34,541 nt of DNA from a candidate division TM6 bacterium GW2011_GWE2_41_16 (GTDB taxonomy: Bacteria > Babelota > Babeliae > Babelales > Babelaceae). Below, piece after piece: positions 125 to 34,407 of this stretch. Positions within the stretch are counted from its first letter, which is position 1; each line of letters begins with the position of its first letter. Where the stretch lies: contig LCAT01000014.1 in NCBI GenBank assembly GCA_000996695.1, positions 1 to 34,541 of the forward strand. Direction: 5' to 3'. Position numbers and translations under genes: made by a program. The notes beneath the pieces were generated by a model that was not told the origin of the DNA, searched no databases, and saw nothing but the letters and a program-made list of their open reading frames with translations.

Positions 125-3100
125 TTAATCGTTGAGTAATTCTTGTAATATATAGTGAGCTTCTTGTAGTTCTTTGGTGCTTTCCCCTAAAGCCTGCTGT
201 AGGTTAAAGCGTTCTTGATATTTTCGTCCTATGAAGTCTCTTTTTTGTTGTTTCGTGGTGAACGGGGCCAGGTCTATTTCTTGTATGTCTAAAGTTTTGT
301 ATAAATCTACAATAGGTTGAAGATATTTTGTTATGATTTCGAAAAATCCAGTATATTTTCCACAGCTTTCCGTTATTTGTTTAATTTTTATTTCTGCTGC
401 ATTCTTTTTTTGTTGAGCCGCTAGTTGTTCCTGTGTTGTTTTTGTTGCATCCCTTAATATTTCTTCAGCTTCTTTTATTTCAGCTACTTCTTGTACTGTT
501 AATTTGTCTGGATGTTTTAATCGAGCTTGTTTTCTGTATTCTTTTTTTATATTTTTAAAAATATTTTGTTTTTGTTCTTCAGTAAGATCTTGAATGCGAA
601 TGTTTGGTTGTTGACCTAAAACTGCATCAAATTGTGACTTAAAAGTTACAACGGCATCAGCTATTTCTTTTTGTTTTTTGAAAGTTGCTTCTGTACCATC
701 AATAACCGTAGATATTTGAATAACACGATCACTTATGGTATTTTTTTGTGCTTGATTCATCATTTCGTTGTGACCAATTGCTATTTTTTGTCGTAAAGCT
801 AACAGATGTTGTATGGTATGTTCTGTTTGAGCGCCTTGAGAGAGCATTTGAGCCAATTGAATCATATTGTCAATATATACTTGAAAAATATTGTCTATTG
901 TTTGCAAAGAATATTGATCATTAATTTGCTGCGCTTGTGCTTTTAGTTGTAATGTTCGTGTAAATACATTGTCAAGATAGGCCTCAGGAGGATGATTTTG
1001 TTGTAGCGCGCCATATGTATCTGTTAATTCTTTTTGTAATGCTGAAAGTGTTTGTGGCACCGGTACCTGCATGGCTGGAGTTTGTGTTGTAGTCGCAGCA
1101 GGTGGATGTTGTGCCTGTGCTGCTTGTTTTGCTGCAATACGTCGCTGCAGTTCGGCGATAAGATTCTGTGTTGGCGCGAAGTGAGGATGTATGTTTTTTG
1201 TAAATACTTTTTGTGCATCGGTTAAAAGAGCAGTAAGTATTTGTAATTGTTCTTCATAAGGTCTTCGAGCTTCTGGGTGTAATTGCTGTAAGTCCATTTC
1301 GATTTCATTACCATGCTGCTTCCATACATTCTCAAAAGTACCAAACTCTTGCCTCGTTTGTTGGCAGAGGGTGGTAATTCTCGCTATTTCTTGATCGAGG
1401 GTTGATACGATTGCTGGTGAATAAAACATCTGAGACGCATTTTTTAAATTTACAAAATGTGTTAGTGCCAATTCAATCTCTTCTAACACTATTTCGTTCA
1501 TAGGAAGTGTTCTTTGATAGATTCGTACGGGTACTTGTTTTGCAAGAGCCATCAGTAATGGTTGATACACAGGCGCTAAGGTATTTAAGAACCTGATTGT
1601 ATCTAAAACTGTATTTTCTGCGTGAGTGAATAATTCCCGATATTCTACTTTTAAAAGATCGTGGATAAAAGGATTTTGTAAATATTCCAAAACGTTTGTA
1701 TTAATCCTTGGCATATTTGTTGTGTTAATGAAAAACATAAAGTTTTTTGTCACATATGATTTGAGTTCATTAAAATATTTTGTTCGTGCATTCTGAGGGA
1801 CAAGTAAAAAATTTATATCTTGTTTGCTTGCCTGAGCATATTGATGTTGTGGAATAGTTTGATTTGCTGCAAGAGCTGCAAAAAATTTATCCAACAAGCT
1901 TTGTATCGAAAGGTCAGATACTTGAGTGTATGGATCAGTTTCTCTGAGTTTTTGTTGGTGTATCCAGAGTGCAAAAGGAATGGATAAACCATTAAAAAGT
2001 TGATCGTTTCCGTACCATGATGATCGTTTTCCTCCTGGTGCTGTTGCATCAGGTGTCCATGCAAATTGTGCGTCCGTTGGTAAATTATTGCGCGTAAAGA
2101 TATCGGTAAGCGCAGAGACGACTATTTTGAGCCCTCTTACAGACCTTTCTTGATCACGATTCTGAATGATATCGCTCAAAGAATACCAGACATTATCAAA
2201 GAGTTGGTTTAGTGGTCGCTGAACATTTTCTTGAGTACGTGCGTTATTGTCCTGGTAAGCATCAATAAGTTGTTTTTGTTGCGCCATAAACTGTCGTATG
2301 ATTCTTATTTTGTCTATCAATTGCGGATTAACTGTTTGTTGGGTTGCTTGCATTGCTGCGTTAACTGATTGTTCTATTTGTGTGCATTCAGCAATTCTTT
2401 GAGCCATGGGTGTTTGAGCGTTAATTTGCTGTATTTGAGTCAGTAGGGCGTCGATCTGTTGCAAATAAATTCGATCATTCTCAAGCTCTCGTTGTTTTTT
2501 ATAAAGATACCTGCCGAGCGCTGTTTCGGTTTCTTGTGCTTGTGTTACTAACTGTGCTGTTGCTGAACCATACATGTTTTGTGCTTGTTGTTTCAATCGC
2601 GCTATGTTTTGTTGAGCCGCTTGAATTTGTTCAATGGTTGTTTCTGGTTGACTTAAAATAGTGTGCACTCGCCGTATGTCTTTTTGTATGTTTTGAACGC
2701 TGGCGCCAAAAATTTGCTCTTTTTGTTTATAGATGGCTTGAGCATCCTGGTAAAAAGTGTTTATTACCGGAGGTAGTGTGGTGCCAAAAATTTGTGCAAG
2801 TGCTGTGAGCTCTGTATGCATTTGCTTAAGGTATGTTTGAAGCTCTGTGAGCTTTTGATACGTTATTTCATGTGGCAAAATACTGTGCAAATTTTTATGA
2901 GCTTCCATCAGCTGGTTTGTATGCATTATAATTGCCAGATTTTTTTGATCTAATTGATTGAATGATTGTCTTTTTGTCATTGCAACATCAAGCGAATGGT
3001 CAGGTACGTAGTGTGCAAAATCTGTGATTATGCGGTTTACCATGGTGCGTGCTTGTTCTGAGATATTTTCTAAGGCGAATGCATACAGCTCATTAAAATA

Positions 3101-5635
3101 TGGCAAGCGATTTTGAGCTTCTGCAAAGAGAAACGCAAATTCTTCTGGTGTGATATTGAGATAATTGCGGCCTTGAGTGAGATTTTGTTGTGTAAGTACA
3201 GTAAAAAAATTTCGTAGCAATGTAGGCCAGCAAAACTCAGGAATGTTTTTGTACGGATCGTTTTGCACGAGCTCTTGCTGTTGCCTGTAAAGATACAATG
3301 GTATTGAAAAATGTGGCGTGAGGCCATCATGCCATAATGAAGGATCTTTTTGTTTTAATTGTTCTTTCAATGGTGTAAATTGTGCATCCGTAGGAGAATT
3401 TTTCAGTCGGTCGGTGATAATGTGAGTAAGTGCTTTTAAAGAGTCATTTATTCGTGCAGGCGTGTAATACGGATTAGGCTCTTTGTATGGATTATTTTTA
3501 GTAAATACGGTAAGCCAAAAAGTGCTAAACAGTTTTGCTAGATCATATTTTTCATATAGTTGTGTCGCTTCATGTATTGCTTGATGGGCGGGTATGACAG
3601 CTTTTTGTGTTTCTAAAAATTTTTGTGATGCTTGTGTATCAGCTGAAGGTCCTATCAATTCAGAAGCTTTTTTTTGTTCCTGCTCGAGTTGATCAAGGGC
3701 TTGTTTACGAACTTCAAATGGTGTTTGTGGATTAGCAATTATTGTTTGTGTTTTTTGAAGCGATGTATTCAAGTCTTCTTGCGCCCGATTAATTATTGTA
3801 ATGCGCTGTGTAACTTCTTGCAGTTTTGCTCGAGCTTGTTGAATAGCGGCATTTTGTTGAGTATGTATTGTTTGAGCTGCGTTTAGTTGTTCTCCAAGTT
3901 GTTGGCGTAATTCTATTAAGAGATTCACGGGCGCTTGTGTTGCTAAATGACCATGTATATCTGTGGTAAGGCGAGTAATGCCATCTATGTTTTTTTGCAG
4001 ATCTGTAGCCAATTGTTGCTGAGTCTGTTGTGCCTGTTGTTGTAAAGCAATGATGGTTGGTAGATCTGTTTGGGTGGATGGTTGTAATGCTTGCATGTCA
4101 TTAAGTATATTGTTTGCCTGTAGATATTTTTTGGCAAGCGTTTGCAACCCGATGAGCCATTGATCTGTGTGCGGAGTAGCAGTCTTGAGATATTGATCTA
4201 ATTGTTTGTAGCTTTCTATAAACGCGTTTGCTGCTTTTATTTTTGCAATTTTTTGTTGATCGACTGGGGTAAAAAGGTTTGTTGGTATCTGATCAAAAAA
4301 ATGATTTGGTTGGTATTGCAAAATGTGTGTATCGATAGCGTTGGTTACAGCTTGGAGATATTGCGAGTATGTTTTTTGAGTAAAAGAACGAAGATGTGTG
4401 GATAAAGCATTGTTGGGTTGGCCCGCTATGTAGATTAAATCATTTTGGCCTGGCATAAGTGTCTGTGGTGCTGAGGTATCGAGAACAGCAAAAAAATCTC
4501 TCATAATTGTATTCCATGCGAGTGCAGGAAAATTTTCGCAAGCGTCTTGTTGTGTGAGGCCCGCATATTCTTGGTGTAAAAAGAATGGTAACGATACATT
4601 GATACCTGTTTTACTCCAAGATTGATTTTGGATTGTTGGCGCGGCAGGAGTTTTTAGTCTTTGAGAAAGGGTGAAAATAATTGCCTTGAGATGTTGAGAT
4701 CTGTATTTATCATTTTGAGGAGTGTGTGCAAAAACGGTCCAAAAATTTTCGCATATCTTGTTAATATCTGCTGCTTTGTACTGGTTTTTATAATGCTCTA
4801 TATAATTATTTTCTTGAGTTATGATCTGTATATTTTTTTTTCGATCAGCAAACCAATCGTAATTTTGAAGCTGTGAAATATCGCAATGGATAGGTTTTTG
4901 TGTAATAAGAGTATCGACAGCTTGAATTTTTTGTTGTACCTGAGCAATGTTTGATACGTCTTGTTCAATGTTTTTACTTATTTCTGCAAATTCTTTTAAT
5001 GCTTGTGCAAAACGGTTCGCGAAATCAGTAGATTCACGGGTTTCTTGTGTGGCTTTTCGGTTAGCCTCTTGTTGAGCAATTTCCGCTGGAGTAGGTGCTG
5101 GTGACGTTATAACTACAGGAGTGTCTACGAGTGGTTGATCAAGTGGTGGCACTGCAAAGTGAATTGCTGTTTGTGGAAATCGCACAGGACCTGTTCCAAT
5201 GTGATTGTCTTGATCTTGGATTACTGGTGGCACAATTGCTGGTACCGGTGCCGGTAATGGTACTGGTGCAAGCGCAGGCGCAGGTGCTGGTCCTACAAGC
5301 ATTGGTGGTCTATTTTTGTTTTGCATAGGCAGTTTATTAAAACATCCTGCAATTAAACGACGGTTACGCAATGCGTTCCATACGAGCATCGCATCTGCAG
5401 CAAGAGCCCATTTACCTGCTCCACGTTTGTGGGCTATATAGGTTAATCCAATGATACCAGTAACAGATAGTGCAACGGTAGTAGCAATTTTTTTGGGATG
5501 ATTTTGTGCGCCATGACGAAATTTGGTGAATGCTGCATGCTCAAAGGGCGTTGGGCTATGCAAAAACTGCATAGCATGTACACCAAAACTCATGATCAAT
5601 GCGTATAGTACGCCTATTCTTAATATATTTTTCAT
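125..5635 (-). CDS. Giant secreted or anchored coiled-coil protein with three repeat modules and a C-terminal J-domain
   Basis: The protein has 1836 residues from the chosen ATG at 5635, which has AAGG nine bases upstream and opens directly with a signal peptide (MKNILRIGVLYALIMSF, predicted cut after GVHA). An in-frame ATG at 5668 lacks a good ribosome site. A second hydrophobic segment lies at about residues 48-69, then a Pro/Ala/Val-rich linker at about 109-139. Three divergent modules of about 180-190 residues follow at roughly 294-474, 701-879 and 1144-1332. They share an FW-x-VF-like opening, an LPFFLHQE or IPLYLYRQQ block, a DPY block and an FFAVL-like block, and are separated by Gln-rich coiled-coil stretches. 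Near the end (about 1672-1727) is a J-domain-like segment with the HPD tripeptide at 1708-1710, preceded by YRKQARLK and followed by AEIKEAEEILRD. The HPD loop is what stimulates Hsp70 in known J-proteins; here the export signal makes the partner unclear. No enzymatic domain is recognised. Confidence 0.9.
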   Translation of the reverse strand: MKNILRIGVLYALIMSFGVHAMQFLHSPTPFEHAAFTKFRHGAQNHPKKIATTVALSVTGIIGLTYIAHKRGAGKWALAADAMLVWNALRNRRLIAGCFNKLPMQNKNRPPMLVGPAPAPALAPVPLPAPVPAIVPPVIQDQDNHIGTGPVRFPQTAIHFAVPPLDQPLVDTPVVITSPAPTPAEIAQQEANRKATQETRESTDFANRFAQALKEFAEISKNIEQDVSNIAQVQQKIQAVDTLITQKPIHCDISQLQNYDWFADRKKNIQIITQENNYIEHYKNQYKAADINKICENFWTVFAHTPQNDKYRSQHLKAIIFTLSQRLKTPAAPTIQNQSWSKTGINVSLPFFLHQEYAGLTQQDACENFPALAWNTIMRDFFAVLDTSAPQTLMPGQNDLIYIAGQPNNALSTHLRSFTQKTYSQYLQAVTNAIDTHILQYQPNHFFDQIPTNLFTPVDQQKIAKIKAANAFIESYKQLDQYLKTATPHTDQWLIGLQTLAKKYLQANNILNDMQALQPSTQTDLPTIIALQQQAQQTQQQLATDLQKNIDGITRLTTDIHGHLATQAPVNLLIELRQQLGEQLNAAQTIHTQQNAAIQQARAKLQEVTQRITIINRAQEDLNTSLQKTQTIIANPQTPFEVRKQALDQLEQEQKKASELIGPSADTQASQKFLETQKAVIPAHQAIHEATQLYEKYDLAKLFSTFWLTVFTKNNPYKEPNPYYTPARINDSLKALTHIITDRLKNSPTDAQFTPLKEQLKQKDPSLWHDGLTPHFSIPLYLYRQQQELVQNDPYKNIPEFCWPTLLRNFFTVLTQQNLTQGRNYLNITPEEFAFLFAEAQNRLPYFNELYAFALENISEQARTMVNRIITDFAHYVPDHSLDVAMTKRQSFNQLDQKNLAIIMHTNQLMEAHKNLHSILPHEITYQKLTELQTYLKQMHTELTALAQIFGTTLPPVINTFYQDAQAIYKQKEQIFGASVQNIQKDIRRVHTILSQPETTIEQIQAAQQNIARLKQQAQNMYGSATAQLVTQAQETETALGRYLYKKQRELENDRIYLQQIDALLTQIQQINAQTPMAQRIAECTQIEQSVNAAMQATQQTVNPQLIDKIRIIRQFMAQQKQLIDAYQDNNARTQENVQRPLNQLFDNVWYSLSDIIQNRDQERSVRGLKIVVSALTDIFTRNNLPTDAQFAWTPDATAPGGKRSSWYGNDQLFNGLSIPFALWIHQQKLRETDPYTQVSDLSIQSLLDKFFAALAANQTIPQHQYAQASKQDINFLLVPQNARTKYFNELKSYVTKNFMFFINTTNMPRINTNVLEYLQNPFIHDLLKVEYRELFTHAENTVLDTIRFLNTLAPVYQPLLMALAKQVPVRIYQRTLPMNEIVLEEIELALTHFVNLKNASQMFYSPAIVSTLDQEIARITTLCQQTRQEFGTFENVWKQHGNEIEMDLQQLHPEARRPYEEQLQILTALLTDAQKVFTKNIHPHFAPTQNLIAELQRRIAAKQAAQAQHPPAATTTQTPAMQVPVPQTLSALQKELTDTYGALQQNHPPEAYLDNVFTRTLQLKAQAQQINDQYSLQTIDNIFQVYIDNMIQLAQMLSQGAQTEHTIQHLLALRQKIAIGHNEMMNQAQKNTISDRVIQISTVIDGTEATFKKQKEIADAVVTFKSQFDAVLGQQPNIRIQDLTEEQKQNIFKNIKKEYRKQARLKHPDKLTVQEVAEIKEAEEILRDATKTTQEQLAAQQKKNAAEIKIKQITESCGKYTGFFEIITKYLQPIVDLYKTLDIQEIDLAPFTTKQQKRDFIGRKYQERFNLQQALGESTKELQEAHYILQELLND

Positions 5636-5689
5636 GGATATACGCCTTAATAAAAAAATGCGTTGCATAGTATTTCTTAATTACATTTA

Positions 5690-5848: not shown

Positions 5849-5881
5849 AAAAAAACGCCGAAGCTTGAAACGCTTCGGCGT
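5849..5881 (-). terminator. Rho-independent terminator, minus strand
   Basis: A perfect 10-bp stem (ACGCCGAAGC at 5855-5864 with GCTTCGGCGT at 5872-5881) has a 7-base loop and, read on the minus strand, is followed by seven T. It would end transcripts arriving from the coiled-coil gene at 6357-7619 after they cross the repeat-rich gap. Confidence 0.85.
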
Positions 5882-9848: not shown

Positions 9849-11705
9849 TTACATGCGGTATGAAACAGCAATGATATAACTTTGTTCGGCAGTAGAAGTT
9901 TTTTTTGATTTCTCTCGGCCGTTGAGTTTATTTGAAGTTTCGCTTATACCACGTGTCACACGTTTTACGTATGTGCGTGTGAACCCGCTTGCATCTTGAT
10001 AATCAACCCAGCCTCCACCGCGGCTTACCACGCGCATGTCATCAAACAATGCTTTTCCGCGTTTATTTTTGACTGTTTTTACATCTGTCCAGATGAGGTC
10101 TTTATTCACGCCGGATATTAGGCAAATGCCATCTTCGCTATAGACAGAAACAAACAGATCGCCATGAATGAAATCTGAGGGCATTTCTGAAAATCTAGTA
10201 AACGACTCGTCTATGGGATGATTTTTAAAAAAAGATTCAGCTTTTTTAGCAAGCGCTTCTACGCTGCGTTCTTTGGATATAGGCCAAAAACTTGATCCAA
10301 CAATAAGCTCTCCTTCGGGTGTTTCGACAAGTTGTACAAAAGCGTCTGCATATGCTCGACGATTAACAAACCCGAACCAGCCACTTTTTTGTGTGACTGC
10401 GATATCGATAATTTTTTTGGTAATAAAATTACCGTCGGCATCCTTGGAATTTATAAGATTTTGCCCAATAAAAATAGGATTTTGACCATCAGCAAGCATG
10501 ACACCGTCAGGACGATATGCAAATACGGTCAATGGTCCTTCGATAAAACCGGCATCACGTGTCGTAAAATCGCGTAATGCATTTGTGAATCCTGCACTAC
10601 GAATATGAGCAACTGCTTTATGAACGAATGCTTGTACCTGTTCGTGGTTGATAAACGGATAATATCCTGCACCAAAAATGAATGATTCTTTTGAGATAGG
10701 ATCTTCCATTTTTTCAACGTATGCTCGTTTTATTGCGCCGTTTTCTATGTATTCTATCCAACCTTTTCCGGCATCCTTAACCAATTTAATCATTTCTTTA
10801 TTGCGGTATTGACCATTTGAGTCTTGCCAGTTGAGAAGGTCTTGTCCGATCATTGCCGGGTTATTTCCATGAGCCTTGCACTCACCCAACATGTTATATG
10901 CCCACAGATAAATATCGCCACGTACAAATGCTCCCATAGGGTTTGATATTTGTTCAAATGCAGCGCGTGCACTTTTTTGTTGAGCGAGATTAATAGCCGC
11001 TTTAACGAGTTGCTCAGCAATAAATTCGCCCGTTTCTGGATAAAAACTTGCGCCAATGATATACGTTTGTTTGTCTTTTTTTGTTGTTTTGACATATGAG
11101 TATGCAAGTGCATTTTTCCATGTATTGCTTATCCATAAGCCTTTTTCCCCTGCCTCGCGCATTCGCTCGATGAAAGGCTCCCCCTCTTCTCCTTTTTTTA
11201 CAAAATTTTTCCAGATTGCCCAGGAGTCATTGTCATAGCGGTAGCAGATACCCGAATCAGAGAAAACAAAAAGACTTATACCGCCCAGGTTCCACTGTTG
11301 ATCGCTGCCAAACGATTTGCATGTATATGATAGGGTGTGTTTTTTCAAAAAGGCTACTGCATTGTTAACCATTTTTTCCATCTGAACCATTTTTGCTTTA
11401 AGTATTTCATTGATCTGTTCGTTTGAAATGGTACGTATGGTAATGCCAGTTTCTTTCGACTCTTTTTCTAAATTTGCTGGTGCTTCTGTATCAACAGCAG
11501 TTTGAGTACTATCATCCTCAGCCTGAGTATCCTTGTCTTCATCTTCAATTATTGTAGCCTCAGAATTTTCTTCCTCCTGGATAGGCTGGTTTTTGAGTGC
11601 AGCAATTTTGGTTAGGGCAGAAGCTTTTGCTGGTTTATCTGCAGCAAACCCTGGTATATACACCATGAGCAATAGCGCTATGGCATAGGTGAAAAATTGT
11701 TTCAT
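9849..11705 (-). CDS. Secreted protein with four tandem single-Cache domains
   Basis: The protein has 618 residues; AAGGAGG sits nine bases before ATG 11705. A signal peptide (residues 1-21, …YIPGFA|ADKP) is followed by an acidic low-complexity stretch (about 45-85). Four repeats of about 120-130 residues are centred near 140, 262, 392 and 513. Each has a helix, then GD-x-Y/F-V-x-x-Y or equivalent, a DG-x-x-L/C turn, NP-x-x-IGQ-NL in copies 2 and 3, a GWI/GWV-x-Y strand, and YVxKxE followed by YIIGASF or FIFGAGY. This is the layout of sCache_2-type ligand-binding domains. Cache domains normally form the extracellular sensor of chemoreceptors and kinases; here no membrane helix or signalling domain follows, so the protein should be free in the periplasm or outside. 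Ligand unknown. It forms an operon with the gene at 9344. Confidence 0.9.
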   Translation of the reverse strand: MKQFFTYAIALLLMVYIPGFAADKPAKASALTKIAALKNQPIQEEENSEATIIEDEDKDTQAEDDSTQTAVDTEAPANLEKESKETGITIRTISNEQINEILKAKMVQMEKMVNNAVAFLKKHTLSYTCKSFGSDQQWNLGGISLFVFSDSGICYRYDNDSWAIWKNFVKKGEEGEPFIERMREAGEKGLWISNTWKNALAYSYVKTTKKDKQTYIIGASFYPETGEFIAEQLVKAAINLAQQKSARAAFEQISNPMGAFVRGDIYLWAYNMLGECKAHGNNPAMIGQDLLNWQDSNGQYRNKEMIKLVKDAGKGWIEYIENGAIKRAYVEKMEDPISKESFIFGAGYYPFINHEQVQAFVHKAVAHIRSAGFTNALRDFTTRDAGFIEGPLTVFAYRPDGVMLADGQNPIFIGQNLINSKDADGNFITKKIIDIAVTQKSGWFGFVNRRAYADAFVQLVETPEGELIVGSSFWPISKERSVEALAKKAESFFKNHPIDESFTRFSEMPSDFIHGDLFVSVYSEDGICLISGVNKDLIWTDVKTVKNKRGKALFDDMRVVSRGGGWVDYQDASGFTRTYVKRVTRGISETSNKLNGREKSKKTSTAEQSYIIAVSYRM

Positions 11706-16187: not shown

Positions 16188-16409
16188 GAGACGATCCTCT
16201 TTTTTTTTGTAAAAATGAATTTTTGACTAATGAGCATTGAGCTCACGCTATCAGATGATTGGCTAAAAAAGCAAGCGCTTTTGAAAGACCATTTTTTTGT
16301 GTGATAGTCCCAGCCTTTTTTTATAATGTTGGGTTGTTTTAGCTTTGTGAGAGTATGCTCTTGCCGATCGGGAAAAAACTGTTTAATACTTTTTTTGAGG
16401 AGTTTTGCA

Positions 16410-17096
16410 GTGAAAATTTTTTTGCTCTTGGCAGTGTTTTTTGTTCAACTGCATGGTATGGAAGTTATGGTCAATCAGTCTCAACAGAAGTCTTTGGTTG
16501 TTCAGGCACCTGTAGATTTGTTTACGGTTATCAGAAATTTTGAGCAAAGCTTAACTAAAGGTCAAAAAACCGCTCAAAAAGAGTTACAAATTATTTATAA
16601 GCAGATTAGCCAAGGCCTCATGCCCGAAAACATTATTATCGGGCATAAAACGCTACTAGCTTGGCTTTTGTTTTATGGTGCTGATGCCAGATGCGTTCTT
16701 GATGTTATGCAATGGGTTAAGAATGAAAAGGCGTATGTGAATGCTATTGACCTTCCAGATAGTATGACTCCTCTCATGGCAGCTCTGTTAGCTTATAAAA
16801 ATACTCAAAATGTTGATGGGTATTGTGTTGATATGTCTCGGGAGGAACATGTTCTTAATACAATCGAATTGCTAATGGCTTTTGGAGCATCTGTCTCTAC
16901 AAAATATAAAAATGCTTTCCCCCTTGAGTATGCTCTTAAATATCATGAATATAATCACGCTTTACTGACGGATTTTTGGTGTGTAATGGGCAGAAAAAAT
17001 CGGCGCTTATTATCGCCGAAAACTCGAGGAGAAGTTTTATGGCGCATTGCTGATTTAGTTGGTATTTCCTGTGTTTCATATAGCGAAGTCCATTGA
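16410..17096 (+). CDS. Secreted ankyrin-like protein, tandem paralogue 1
   Basis: The protein has 228 residues from a GTG start at 16410, preceded by GAGGAG; this start yields a signal peptide (VKIFLLLAVFFVQLHG|MEV), while the longer frame does not. The mature part has HKTLLAWLLFYGAD, MTPLMAALLAYKN and IELLMAFGASV…FPLEYALKYHE, which match the helix-loop-helix pattern of two to three ankyrin repeats. It is clearly homologous to the next gene (shared FEQSLTK, QKTAQKEL, IYKQI, HKTLL.WLL..GAD), and its leader and GTG start are also shared. The C-terminus and TGA stop lie inside a dispersed repeat starting at 17079, so the original end may have been replaced. Exported ankyrin proteins are often host-interaction factors; that role is inference. 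Confidence 0.85.
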   Translation: MKIFLLLAVFFVQLHGMEVMVNQSQQKSLVVQAPVDLFTVIRNFEQSLTKGQKTAQKELQIIYKQISQGLMPENIIIGHKTLLAWLLFYGADARCVLDVMQWVKNEKAYVNAIDLPDSMTPLMAALLAYKNTQNVDGYCVDMSREEHVLNTIELLMAFGASVSTKYKNAFPLEYALKYHEYNHALLTDFWCVMGRKNRRLLSPKTRGEVLWRIADLVGISCVSYSEVH

Positions 17097-17184: not shown

Positions 17185-17320
17185 ATAAAAAAATAATACC
17201 ATAGTCGTCATTGTTGTATGCATACTGCAGAGGCGCTTGTCATAGTAAGCTCGATATATTTTTCGGTAATATGTGATAAAATCGAAAAAAAATTATGTAA
17301 CATTTTTGAGGAGTTGTGCG

Positions 17321-18001
17321 GTGAAAAAATTTTTGATTCTTGCACTATATTCAGTGCATCTGTGTGCCATGGAAGTTACCAACCCACAATTATCAGTTCA
17401 ATCTTTTGAGATGATTCCATCTCCTGCCGATTTGTTTGCGGTTATCAAAGATTTTGAGCAAAGCTTAACCAAAAATCAACGAACTGCTCACAAAGAATTA
17501 AATGCTATCTATAAGCAGATTAACCAGGGTACAACGCTTGAAACCGTTGTTGTGAGCCATAAAACGTTATTGACGTGGTTGTTACTCCATGGAGCTGACC
17601 TGAATTGTGTTCGCAATATCATAGGTTTTGTAAATAATAAACGAGAATATGTAAATGCACATGTACCAGGATATCCTGAATGGACGCCGCTTATTGCTGC
17701 ATTGTCAGCAAGAAAAAATGTAAAATGCGTTGATAAACAAAATTCTATTGTCAATGGTATCAACTTATCCCCTGAAGCGCGAATTAGGTTGTTGGTCAAA
17801 CAACTTATGGGGAATGGGGCACATGCAAATAATGGGTATGAGAAACGTTACTGCTGCCAAATACGAAAAAACTCTTTAATTTTTCCCGTTGACTATGCGT
17901 TTAAAAATCATGGAGATGATCGAGATTTAATATTGATGTTATTAGATGCGATGGATGAGAAAAACCGTAGTCTTGTATCAAACCGTATACATATCGATTG
18001 A
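17321..18001 (+). CDS. Secreted ankyrin-like protein, tandem paralogue 2
   Basis: The protein has 226 residues from GTG 17321 with GAGGAG upstream, the same leader as its neighbour. The signal peptide is VKKFLILALYSVHLCA|MEV. Residues from about 30 onward align with paralogue 1: DFEQSLTKNQRTAHKEL, IYKQINQG, SHKTLLTWLLLHGAD, WTPLIAALSARKN, and VKQLMGNGAHA…FPVDYAFKNHGDD. This is an ankyrin-type pattern of weak, widely spaced repeats. It carries an insertion (INLSPEAR and CCQIRKNS regions) relative to paralogue 1, and keeps a natural C-terminus. It ends 26 bases before a terminator hairpin. Function unknown; export plus ankyrin repeats suggests protein binding outside the cytoplasm. Confidence 0.87.
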   Translation: MKKFLILALYSVHLCAMEVTNPQLSVQSFEMIPSPADLFAVIKDFEQSLTKNQRTAHKELNAIYKQINQGTTLETVVVSHKTLLTWLLLHGADLNCVRNIIGFVNNKREYVNAHVPGYPEWTPLIAALSARKNVKCVDKQNSIVNGINLSPEARIRLLVKQLMGNGAHANNGYEKRYCCQIRKNSLIFPVDYAFKNHGDDRDLILMLLDAMDEKNRSLVSNRIHID

Positions 18002-32298: not shown

Positions 32299-32721
32299 AT
32301 GAACAAAAAAATAATGTCAGGTGTTTTGGTTCTTGCCCTTGTATGCGGCATGTCAGTTCAAGCAATTGAGTTGAAAAAAGCGATAGTTCCTGTTGCTGTT
32401 GGCGGTACCATGGCAGGCGCACTCGTGTTATCACATGTTGCCGATACGAGTAACTTTTTAGCTCCTGTAGCGCGTGTATTGAAAAATCACAAATTGACTG
32501 CATGTACATTGGTGGCATGTGGCTTTGTTGCTGCAGCATATGCATGGGGCGATAAACAAAAAACGGTTAAAAACGCACAACAAAACGATGCACAGCAAAA
32601 TTTAAACTTCTTCCAGCGCATTATTTCCGGTTTTGGCAAAATGGGGCCAAATGGTAAAAATGTTTCTGATGCGGTAGGACTTCTCGCATTAACTGGCAAA
32701 TTGATGGCTTTTGTTGCCTAA
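32299..32721 (+). CDS. Small exported membrane protein, array member 1
   Basis: The protein has 140 residues, with AAGGA seven bases before the ATG. The signal peptide is MNKKIMSGVLVLALVCGMSVQA|IELK. Two Gly/Ala-rich hydrophobic segments follow (about 28-46 and 66-84), flanking a polar loop with DTSNFLAPVARVLKNHK. A Gln/Asn-rich part leads to FFQRIISGFGKMG and a final hydrophobic stretch. It is paralogous to the next gene: FLAPVARVLKNHK against IFSPVMNVLKGHK, LVACGFVAAAYAWGDK against LVACGVVALAYSIGDK, and GFGKMG against GFFKMG. Function unknown. Confidence 0.85.
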   Translation: MNKKIMSGVLVLALVCGMSVQAIELKKAIVPVAVGGTMAGALVLSHVADTSNFLAPVARVLKNHKLTACTLVACGFVAAAYAWGDKQKTVKNAQQNDAQQNLNFFQRIISGFGKMGPNGKNVSDAVGLLALTGKLMAFVA

Positions 32722-32756
32722 TATTGCTTGTAGATTTTTGTATTGAAATAGAACGC

Positions 32757-32787
32757 AGGGGGAGCGTTGAGCTCCTCCTATTTTTTT
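32757..32787 (+). terminator. Terminator between array members 1 and 2
   Basis: AGGGGGAGC pairs with GCTCCTCCT (one wobble) around a 5-base loop and is followed by a seven-T run. It ends two bases before the ribosome site of the next gene, so it could act as an attenuator as well as a terminator. Confidence 0.8.
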
Positions 32788-32805
32788 GAAGGATGAAATA
32801 AGACC

Positions 32806-33249
32806 GTGTGTAAGAGTCGTGCAAATCTATTAATTATAACCTGTGCCATTGTCGCTGTATGCTGTGGATCAGCCACGTATGCATGGCGACCTACCTCAAA
32901 ACAGATAGCAGTTTCTGCGTCTGTTGTGGGTGTGGTTGGTTTGGCTTACTTTGCAGACTCGCATGACATTTTTTCACCGGTCATGAATGTTTTAAAAGGG
33001 CACAAAAAGACCGTTACGGCTCTTGTTGCCTGTGGTGTTGTTGCTCTTGCGTACAGTATTGGTGATAAGGTCACCATGCCCGATGACAAAGATCGTTCGC
33101 GATGGTTTATTCGCTCAGGTTGTTATGAATTTTTACGAAAAACCTTTGACGGATTTTTTAAAATGGGTGGTTTCGTGCGTGACTGTAATGATATTCATAT
33201 TGCAACCACGACGGCTGCACGTTTTGTTATGCAAACAAATAAGCATTAA
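32806..33249 (+). CDS. Small exported membrane protein, array member 2
   Basis: The protein has 147 residues from GTG 32806. AAGGA lies 12 bases upstream, a rather long gap, and an ATG-AAA-TAA mini frame sits between, so the start is less sure. Residues 1-26 form a signal-type segment (RANLLIITCAIVAVCCGSATYA). The core matches array member 1 (hydrophobic helix, ADSHDIFSPVMNVLKGHK, hydrophobic helix, GDK, then CYEFLRKTFDGFFKMGG). The C-terminus differs and is polar. No known family. It may depend on read-through of the terminator just upstream or on its own promoter. Confidence 0.8.
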   Translation: MCKSRANLLIITCAIVAVCCGSATYAWRPTSKQIAVSASVVGVVGLAYFADSHDIFSPVMNVLKGHKKTVTALVACGVVALAYSIGDKVTMPDDKDRSRWFIRSGCYEFLRKTFDGFFKMGGFVRDCNDIHIATTTAARFVMQTNKH

Positions 33250-33308
33250 AATAAGAAGAAGTTTAAGGGGTGTAGCGTGAAATTTTTTTTAAACTGTTTG
33301 GAGATTTT

Positions 33309-33770
33309 ATGTTGATCAATATGAAGTCAATGAAAGTGCGAGCATGTCTTATGCTTGCCCTGATCGTTTGTAGTATAAGTTGCTCATCAGTGCACGCAGG
33401 CGCTGTAAAATCGATGGTTAAATTGACTATCGGTGTACCGTGCTTGATCGGTGCATTTTTTGCAGCAAATGAATTTAAAAGCACATGGCCAGAAGCTCGT
33501 CTTGTGTATGCGGATGAATTGTACAAGTCAAGTATACATGAGGATTGGAAGAATCGCATTGCGGGATGGTTTAGGCTTAAGCCTCAAAACATTGCTGGTG
33601 ATGCTTTTGCAAGTCCAATAGAAACTTTCAAAAGGCTTATGAATGCTACGAAAACTAATGGCGAGTCGGTAAAAGAAGCTACCCAAAAAAATATGGTTTG
33701 TGCGGGTACGACGTTGGTGTGTGGTATTGTGGGTTTGGTATTTACGCTCAGCGCACTCAAGCATCTTTAA
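33309..33770 (+). CDS. Small exported membrane protein, array member 3
   Basis: The protein has 153 residues, with GGAG five bases before the ATG. The signal peptide is MKSMKVRACLMLALIVCSIS followed by a VHA cut. A first hydrophobic segment (about 36-53) is followed by a long polar part with WPEARLVYADELYKS, then ETFKRLMNATK and a last hydrophobic segment (VCAGTTLVCGIVGLVFTLSAL). That last segment is similar to the ones in array member 4 (GGCSVVCGAVGLAFLLESI). The general plan is as in members 1 and 2 but sequence similarity to them is weak. Confidence 0.82.
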   Translation: MLINMKSMKVRACLMLALIVCSISCSSVHAGAVKSMVKLTIGVPCLIGAFFAANEFKSTWPEARLVYADELYKSSIHEDWKNRIAGWFRLKPQNIAGDAFASPIETFKRLMNATKTNGESVKEATQKNMVCAGTTLVCGIVGLVFTLSALKHL

Positions 33771-33807
33771 ATCGAAATTTTTTTTAAAAATATCATGAGA
33801 AAGTAAT

Positions 33808-34407
33808 ATGAAAAAAAATAAAACAAATAAAATAATCGTTTTGATATGCTGCTTTTTATTAGCCTTAACACCTATTTCTGCTCATGCTATGTCAATCCTT
33901 GTCCAACGAGGTGTTGGTTTGGGACTCTGTTTACCTACCGTTATTTTTGGTTCTATGGCCAAAAAATCTCATCAATATGGTTTTGGAAGTAGAGGTGTAT
34001 TTTATGGTGGATGCTCGGTAGTTTGTGGTGCTGTAGGCTTAGCCTTTTTACTCGAGTCGATTAAATCACCTGTTTTGCAAGCATGGACTGGTGCGGGACT
34101 TGGCCTGGTTTCTTGTTTCGCGGGACATGAAGCTTTCTGTCAGTATAAAGATGGCGGTAAAATAGGCATAAATGTGATGCTTAATCATCTTGGCCTTAAA
34201 ATGAGAATTCCATACAATCAACAAGAAAAAGGTCTGGTAGCTGAGCATACTTCTAAAGAAGGTTCAGTTGATATGAGTGGTAATTTTGGACAAAATGTGT
34301 ACGAATCTTTTATGAAGATGGGTATGTACGGAGCTCCTGCAGCTTTTTGCGGCATTATTGGTTTGACGCTTATAGCCAAATCGATGAAAACTCTTTTTGC
34401 TCATTAA
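33808..34407 (+). CDS. Small exported membrane protein, array member 4
   Basis: The protein has 199 residues; the upstream GAGAAAG is a fair ribosome site. The signal peptide is KIIVLICCFLLALTPISAHA|MSIL. Three or four Gly/Cys-rich hydrophobic segments follow (about 34-50, 68-88, 96-112 and 173-192). Two of them share the pattern G-x-x-x-x-C-G-x-x-G-L with array member 3. Before the last segment is VYESFMKMGMYG, recalling GFGKMG and GFFKMG of members 1 and 2. No family is recognised. Likely an integral or pore-like membrane protein, but that is only inferred from composition. Confidence 0.83.
   Translation: MKKNKTNKIIVLICCFLLALTPISAHAMSILVQRGVGLGLCLPTVIFGSMAKKSHQYGFGSRGVFYGGCSVVCGAVGLAFLLESIKSPVLQAWTGAGLGLVSCFAGHEAFCQYKDGGKIGINVMLNHLGLKMRIPYNQQEKGLVAEHTSKEGSVDMSGNFGQNVYESFMKMGMYGAPAAFCGIIGLTLIAKSMKTLFAH

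What the first reader, a model, noticed from the sequence alone, without database searches (positions are those of the whole stretch)
125..5635. 1836-residue exported protein with three repeat modules and a J-domain
A signal peptide, a second hydrophobic segment, a Pro-rich linker and three divergent modules of about 185 residues, spaced by about 410-440 residues of coiled coil, are followed by an HPD-containing J-domain segment. J-domains act with cytoplasmic Hsp70. A J-domain at the end of an exported giant protein suggests either topology with the C-terminus inside the cell, or delivery to a host where it could engage host Hsp70. The module is not a family I recognise.
Basis: partly seen in the sequence, partly recalled or inferred. 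Interest (0 to 1): 0.75.

Follow-up and report, generated by a model that had tools for sequence, protein, structure and literature searches.

The report
Exported J-domain protein of intracellular bacterium
A tiny-genomed bacterium that probably lives inside protists (inferred to be a Dependentiae/Babelota member) exports a giant protein ending in a J-domain, the part that switches on Hsp70 chaperones; about half of its phylum exports similar proteins with no exported Hsp70 of its own, so the likeliest target is the host cell's Hsp70.

Summary
The three modules are real: a profile built only from other proteins scores 58-81 bits on them, against at most 5.8 in 500 shuffles. The J-domain is real by sequence (HPD at residues 1719-1721). 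The module belongs to an orphan all-helical domain family: eight copies in five exported proteins of this genome, none convincing in 100 related genomes, no Foldseek match in PDB.

Across this phylum (inferred Dependentiae/Babelota), about 93% of non-DnaJ J-domain proteins carry signal peptides, against 0 of 34 DnaJ proteins and 0 of 30 J-proteins from 12 genomes of other phyla. In the class whose J-domain ends the protein, HPD is the most conserved feature (95%). Some are fused to ankyrin repeats. No exported Hsp70 was recognised.

Best explanation: a HopI1-like effector strategy. Exported J-proteins recruit host Hsp70, and variable bodies choose where and on what. Inside/outside topology is not settled for this protein itself (one clear, one weak hydrophobic segment after the signal peptide); two paralogues with only a signal peptide support export. 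Delivery and Hsp70 binding are inferred.

The parts
125..5668 (-). ORF of the giant J-domain protein (1847 aa; preferred start ATG at 5635 gives 1836 aa)
5570..5635 (-). Sec-type signal peptide (residues 12-33, MKNILRIGVLYALIMSFGVHA)
   Evidence: sequence; hydropathy
5432..5488 (-). Hydrophobic segment TM1 (residues 61-79)
   Evidence: Kyte-Doolittle 1.77
5351..5413 (-). Weak second half of a possible membrane hairpin (residues 86-106; mean hydropathy at most about 0.5); a similar region is more hydrophobic in two proteins encoded on contig C4 (seen by eye)
5069..5338 (-). Pro-rich linker (residues 111-200, 24% Pro)
4205..4780 (-). Module 1 (orphan helical domain)
2894..3565 (-). Module 2
1562..2230 (-). 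Module 3; lead sequence of the AlphaFold model (pLDDT 78.9, pTM 0.81, all helical)
431..619 (-). J-domain (residues about 1684-1746)
506..514 (-). HPD motif (residues 1719-1721)
128..430 (-). Helical C-terminal tail after the J-domain (residues 1747-1847); relatives of the C-terminal class stop within about 13 residues of helix III instead
5855..5881 (-). Terminator-like stem-loop upstream of the gene (10 pairs, T run): the gene is probably its own transcription unit

Best explanation
The gene encodes a Sec-exported, J-domain-bearing effector-type protein. SHOWN (by sequence): a signal peptide, three copies of an orphan helical module, and a J-domain with intact HPD near the C-terminus; four sister proteins in the genome carry the module, three of them also with an HPD J-domain near the C-terminus; the genome has one cytosolic DnaK and no recognised exported Hsp70; exported J-proteins with conserved HPD recur across the phylum. 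INFERRED: the protein leaves the bacterial cytosol (Sec, then perhaps the type II system or outer-membrane vesicles), the N-terminal hydrophobic region and Pro-rich linker may tether it to a membrane, the modules and Q/A-rich spacers bind a target or scaffold, and the J-domain captures and activates Hsp70 of the eukaryotic host, putting host chaperone activity where the parasite wants it. This is the working principle of Pseudomonas HopI1 and of the exported J-proteins of Plasmodium.
For: J-domain and HPD present above chance. Own paralogues with module and C-terminal HPD J-domain: C8 766 aa and C6 684 aa have a signal peptide and no further membrane segment seen; C24 823 aa has ankyrin repeats, module and J. 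Phylum census: 115 of 137 non-DnaJ J ORFs have signal peptides by a crude scorer, 129 of 139 after a wider start-codon search and by-eye additions; DnaJ 0 of 34; other-phylum controls 0 of 30; neighbouring ORFs 239 of 455, so the lineage baseline is high, yet the excess has binomial p about 3e-25. 53 of 101 genomes have at least one J ORF with signal peptide and HPD. H, P and D are each kept in 95% of 39 exported C-terminal J-domains, against a median column of 41%. Net charge +2.2 before and -0.1 after the hydrophobic core fits a signal peptide, not an N-out anchor. One full DnaK in most genomes, the own one starting MAKIIGIDLGTTNS. Exported ankyrin-J fusions in other genomes. ATP/ADP translocase matches (7 here, 0 in 14 controls) fit an intracellular parasite. 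Two secretin genes. Precedents read: HopI1, PMC4617103; PFA66, PMC8544838.
Against: No localisation, secretion or Hsp70-binding data exist. This protein has one clear hydrophobic segment after the signal peptide and only a weak second one, so a C-in topology is possible. The route across the outer membrane and any vacuole membrane is unknown. Helix I and helix IV of the J-domain are degenerate, and Foldseek did not recognise the J fold in the model. A minority of exported J-like domains have lost HPD. The phylum name is inferred, not read from a record.
Confidence: 0.5

Rival explanations
1. C-in membrane protein: signal peptide plus one membrane span (61-79) leaves the modules and J-domain in the bacterial cytosol, where the J-domain recruits the bacterium's own DnaK to the inner membrane (DjlA-like logic).
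For: The second half of the hairpin is only weakly hydrophobic (mean at most about 0.5) and positive residues follow TM1 (HKRGAGK, RNRR).
Against: Two paralogues with the same module and an HPD J-domain have a signal peptide and no second hydrophobic segment; 29 of 35 exported C-terminal J-proteins of the phylum likewise have no later membrane segment; two related N-termini on contig C4 look more strongly two-span by eye.
Confidence: 0.2
2. The J-domain works before export, in cis: it recruits cytosolic DnaK to keep a large multi-domain protein unfolded until Sec exports it, and has no role outside.
For: Needs only the bacterium's own DnaK; would explain HPD conservation across unrelated exported bodies.
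Against: Many carriers are small (191-300 aa) and should not need it; the J-domain sits just after the signal peptide in about 30 proteins and at the extreme C-terminus in about 40; most exported proteins of this lineage, such as the window's other signal-peptide proteins, have none.
Confidence: 0.15
3. The exported J-like domain is a structural or protein-binding helical hairpin in the periplasm, with no Hsp70 partner.
For: A J-like class with HPD lost is widespread in the family (about a dozen ORFs, mostly 660-810 aa).
Against: HPD, which is needed for Hsp70 activation, is the most conserved feature of the C-terminal exported class (95% against a 41% median).
Confidence: 0.1

Closest known systems
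HopI1, type III effector of Pseudomonas syringae (PMC4617103)
   Same: Bacterial host-directed protein with a middle repeat region and a C-terminal J-domain; there the J-domain binds host Hsp70 and stimulates its ATPase, and host Hsp70 is recruited to a chosen compartment.
   Different: HopI1 is 432 aa, injected by a type III system, and its repeats are short P/Q-rich disordered ones. Here Sec signal peptides, folded helical modules of about 190-225 aa, and many unrelated bodies across one phylum. No sequence relation was tested or claimed outside the J-domain.
Exported J-domain proteins of Plasmodium (PFA66, PMC8544838)
   Same: A parasite exports J-proteins to the host cell; HPD is required and the partner is probably host Hsp70.
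   Different: Eukaryotic parasite with its own export pathway; Plasmodium also exports an Hsp70 (PfHSP70-X), for which no counterpart was found here.
DnaJ-domain proteins reported in Babela massiliensis (PMC4378268)
   Same: Same presumed phylum; three lineage-specific DnaJ-domain proteins were noted.
   Different: They were read as part of a chaperone surplus, tentatively tied to cell division; the passages read make no exported-effector argument. The drawing of their domain layout (Figure 5) could not be seen.
DjlA (membrane-anchored bacterial J-protein; from general knowledge)
   Same: N-terminal hydrophobic segment and C-terminal J-domain.
   Different: DjlA is N-out with the J-domain in the cytosol. 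Here the charge pattern is that of a signal peptide.

Membership tests
J-domain proteins (class C/III: J-domain only) | HPD between two helices | tested here: met
   HPD 1719-1721; profile match above shuffles; hhalign probability 96.7; helix-loop-helix in the model
J-domain proteins (class C/III: J-domain only) | Full four-helix J fold recognisable in structure | tested here: inconclusive
   pLDDT 72.5, pTM 0.29; no Foldseek match to J-domains
J-domain proteins (class C/III: J-domain only) | Stimulates an Hsp70 ATPase | not testable with these tools
   needs protein biochemistry
DnaJ (class A/I) | N-terminal J, G/F region, CxxCxGxG zinc repeats | tested here: not met
   J-domain at residues 1684-1746 of 1847 and no other Pfam DnaJ part; the genome has a separate canonical DnaJ
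DjlA-like membrane J-proteins | N-out, C-in anchor with cytosolic J-domain | tested here: inconclusive
   Signal-peptide charge pattern across the exported class argues against it, but the weak second hydrophobic half in this protein leaves it open
HopI1-like host-Hsp70-recruiting effectors | Delivered to the host cell | not testable with these tools
   signal peptide only; route unknown
HopI1-like host-Hsp70-recruiting effectors | J-domain at or near the C-terminus after a repeat region, with HPD kept | tested here: met
Dependentiae/Babelota (taxonomic placement) | Genome about 1 Mb, phylum with a single order, ATP/ADP translocases, ankyrins, abundant signal peptides | tested here: inconclusive
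   101 genomes of the phylum all in one order, mostly about 1 Mb; translocases; ankyrins: all consistent, but no named record of the phylum was retrieved

The most novel reading that the evidence does not exclude
A whole phylum of protist-infecting bacteria uses a large, fast-changing set of Sec-exported J-domain proteins (often with the J-domain at the very end, sometimes fused to ankyrins or to lineage-private modules as here) to commandeer host Hsp70, a bacterial counterpart of the exported J-proteins of Plasmodium.
Probability: 0.45. Interest if true: 0.82.

Novelty: new variant of a known kind. Interest (0 to 1): 0.64.

Why it matters
J-domains need an Hsp70 and ATP, normally found only in cytosols. 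Finding that nearly all non-DnaJ J-proteins of a phylum carry signal peptides, keep HPD above every other position in the C-terminal class, and have no recognised exported partner points at host Hsp70 as a common target of these poorly known parasites. It gives a concrete, testable biochemical handle (J-domain plus protist Hsp70 ATPase assay) on organisms that are hard to grow, and it reinterprets the surplus of chaperones noted earlier in Babela.

Tried and rejected
(1) Relatives of the full protein by single sequence: none in 33 related genomes. (2) Module in 100 other genomes of the phylum: only chance-level matches (best per-genome E 3e-4), so it is private to this species at this sensitivity. 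(3) Module fold: no PDB or viral Foldseek match at E <= 0.001. (4) Foldseek on the C-terminal segment: top matches are generic helical (MIT and other) domains at E about 1, dismissed. (5) genome-contig scans to name the organism: one found nothing, the other (SerRS) gave only distant phyla at 33-40% identity. (6) Profile scan of genome contigs with the module alignment was not possible, too divergent. (7) Exported Hsp70 as partner: not found; the second PF00012 match, checked in the own genome, is MreB. (9) The signal-peptide scorer is a crude script, not SignalP; its misses were partly added by eye. (10) DnaJ, class A, considered and rejected (J-domain near the C-terminus, no zinc repeats).

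Full report
WHAT IS THERE. The feature is on the minus strand: 125..5668, 1847 codons. After it come a hydrophobic segment (61-79), a weakly hydrophobic continuation (86-106), a Pro-rich linker (about 111-200), then three modules (297-488, 702-925, 1147-1369) separated by Q/A-rich segments, a J-domain (about 1684-1746, HPD at 1719-1721) and a helical tail. A terminator-like stem-loop lies upstream.

IS IT MORE THAN CHANCE. A module profile built only from other proteins of the genome scores 81, 68 and 58 bits on the three modules; the best of 500 block-shuffled copies scores 5.8. A J profile that does not contain this protein scores 23.0 bits at 1705-1753; the best shuffle scores 8.3. Pfam DnaJ gives 23.7 bits (below its curated 27.8) in the full protein and 29.7 in the genome scan. 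The J-domains of the four module+J proteins together match DnaJ-type and other J-domains of the phylum at hhalign probability 96.7 and solved J-domains in the PDB (best DNAJC5, E 9e-8). The structure model shows a helix, a loop holding HPD, and a helix, but is moderate (pLDDT 72.5, pTM 0.29) and Foldseek is inconclusive.

THE MODULE FAMILY. Eight copies occur in five proteins of this genome: this one (3), C8 766 aa (1), C24 823 aa (1), C6 684 aa (2), C4 782 aa (1). The C6 and C4 copies were found at E 3e-13 to 7e-11 by a profile that did not include them. Four of the five also end in or near an HPD J-domain; the C4 protein lacks one. The C8 and C6 proteins have a signal peptide and no other membrane segment; C24 adds ankyrin repeats. 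The module model is compact and all helical (pLDDT 78.9, pTM 0.81), with no Foldseek match at E <= 0.001 in PDB or viral libraries and no convincing copy in 100 other genomes of the phylum.

THE ORGANISM. The genome is 940 kb (93.6% complete), in a phylum whose 101 held genomes all fall in one order and are mostly about 1 Mb. It has seven matches to ATP/ADP translocase, absent from 14 control genomes, ankyrin proteins and two secretin genes. This fits Dependentiae/Babelota, described as strict intracellular bacteria of protists (PMC12172432; PMC4378268 and PMC6561590). No named record was retrieved, so the name is an inference.

EXPORTED J-PROTEINS ARE A THEME OF THE PHYLUM. J-domain matches were collected from 62 genomes of the phylum (sequences). 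Of 137 complete non-DnaJ J ORFs, 115 have a signal peptide by a crude scorer; with a wider start-codon search and by-eye additions, 129 of 139. DnaJ itself: 0 of 34. J-proteins of 12 genomes of other phyla: 0 of 30. Neighbouring ORFs in the same stretches: 239 of 455, so the lineage is rich in signal peptides (44% published for one member), but the excess remains large (binomial p about 3e-25; relatedness of sequences is not corrected for). Fifty-three of 101 genomes have at least one J ORF with signal peptide and HPD, 23 have one with the J-domain ending the protein. In that C-terminal class H, P and D are each present in 95% of 39 sequences while the median column is at 41%. Charge is +2.2 before and -0.1 after the hydrophobic core, as in signal peptides and unlike N-out anchors. 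Some are fused to ankyrin repeats.

PARTNER. Most genomes hold a single complete DnaK (two genomes hold two; a few assemblies show only fragments or none); the own one starts MAKIIGIDLGTTNS without a signal peptide, and the second match in the own genome is MreB. An exported Hsp70 was not seen. N-termini of DnaK in other genomes were not read one by one.

HOW IT MOST LIKELY WORKS. Shown by sequence: signal peptide, modules, J-domain, paralogues, phylum-wide pattern, lack of a recognised exported partner. Inferred: passage out of the bacterium, contact with host cytosol, binding of host Hsp70, module as target-binding or scaffold part. The principle is established for HopI1 and for an exported Plasmodium J-protein, where an HPD mutant fails to complement. 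For this protein the topology is open: if the weak second hydrophobic half does not insert, the J-domain would lie in the bacterial cytosol. The paralogues without any such segment argue against that as the family's general rule.

NOVELTY. Extra DnaJ-domain proteins were noted in Babela massiliensis in 2015 and tentatively linked to cell division. In the open-access library searched I found no report of exported J-proteins as a phylum-wide feature; subscription papers are not covered. I rate it a new variant of a known kind (bacterial J-domain effector), with an orphan module of its own.

Noticed in passing
L138, L142, L143, L149, L153, L160 and similar loci; own genome L013:5675-6970: A recurring exported protein (about 430 aa here, mostly 660-810 aa elsewhere) with a J-like domain that has lost HPD (helix II ends ...KRYSPKK, ...KEYDIE) and a longer helix II-III loop; found in most genomes of the same family that were examined. 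Possibly an exported pseudo-J-domain.
   Followed up: partly
L210:1711-4059 and 4056-5087 (own contig C4): Two overlapping genes, each with signal peptide, two hydrophobic segments with a basic loop, and a Pro/Thr-rich linker, the first with one module and no J-domain; the N-terminal architecture resembles that of the finding.
   Followed up: partly
32299-34407 +: Four consecutive small proteins with signal peptide plus further hydrophobic segments, the first two visibly paralogous.
   Followed up: no
9849-11705 -: Exported protein with Cache sensor domains (dCache_2/sCache_2, E 5e-22) and no signalling output domain recognised by Pfam, unusual for an intracellular parasite.
   Followed up: no
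16326-17096 + and 17273-18001 +: Two adjacent paralogous signal-peptide proteins, ankyrin-like by eye.
   Followed up: no
G076:C31:12156-21194; G043:C12:16997-19381; G006:C46:1485-3571: Local arrays of two to four J-protein genes, suggesting tandem duplication.
   Followed up: partly
L086, L091, L092, L206: Several exported J-proteins start with a similar short segment after the signal peptide (IYIKND/VYVRNE/LIIKNN...), perhaps a shared small domain.
   Followed up: no
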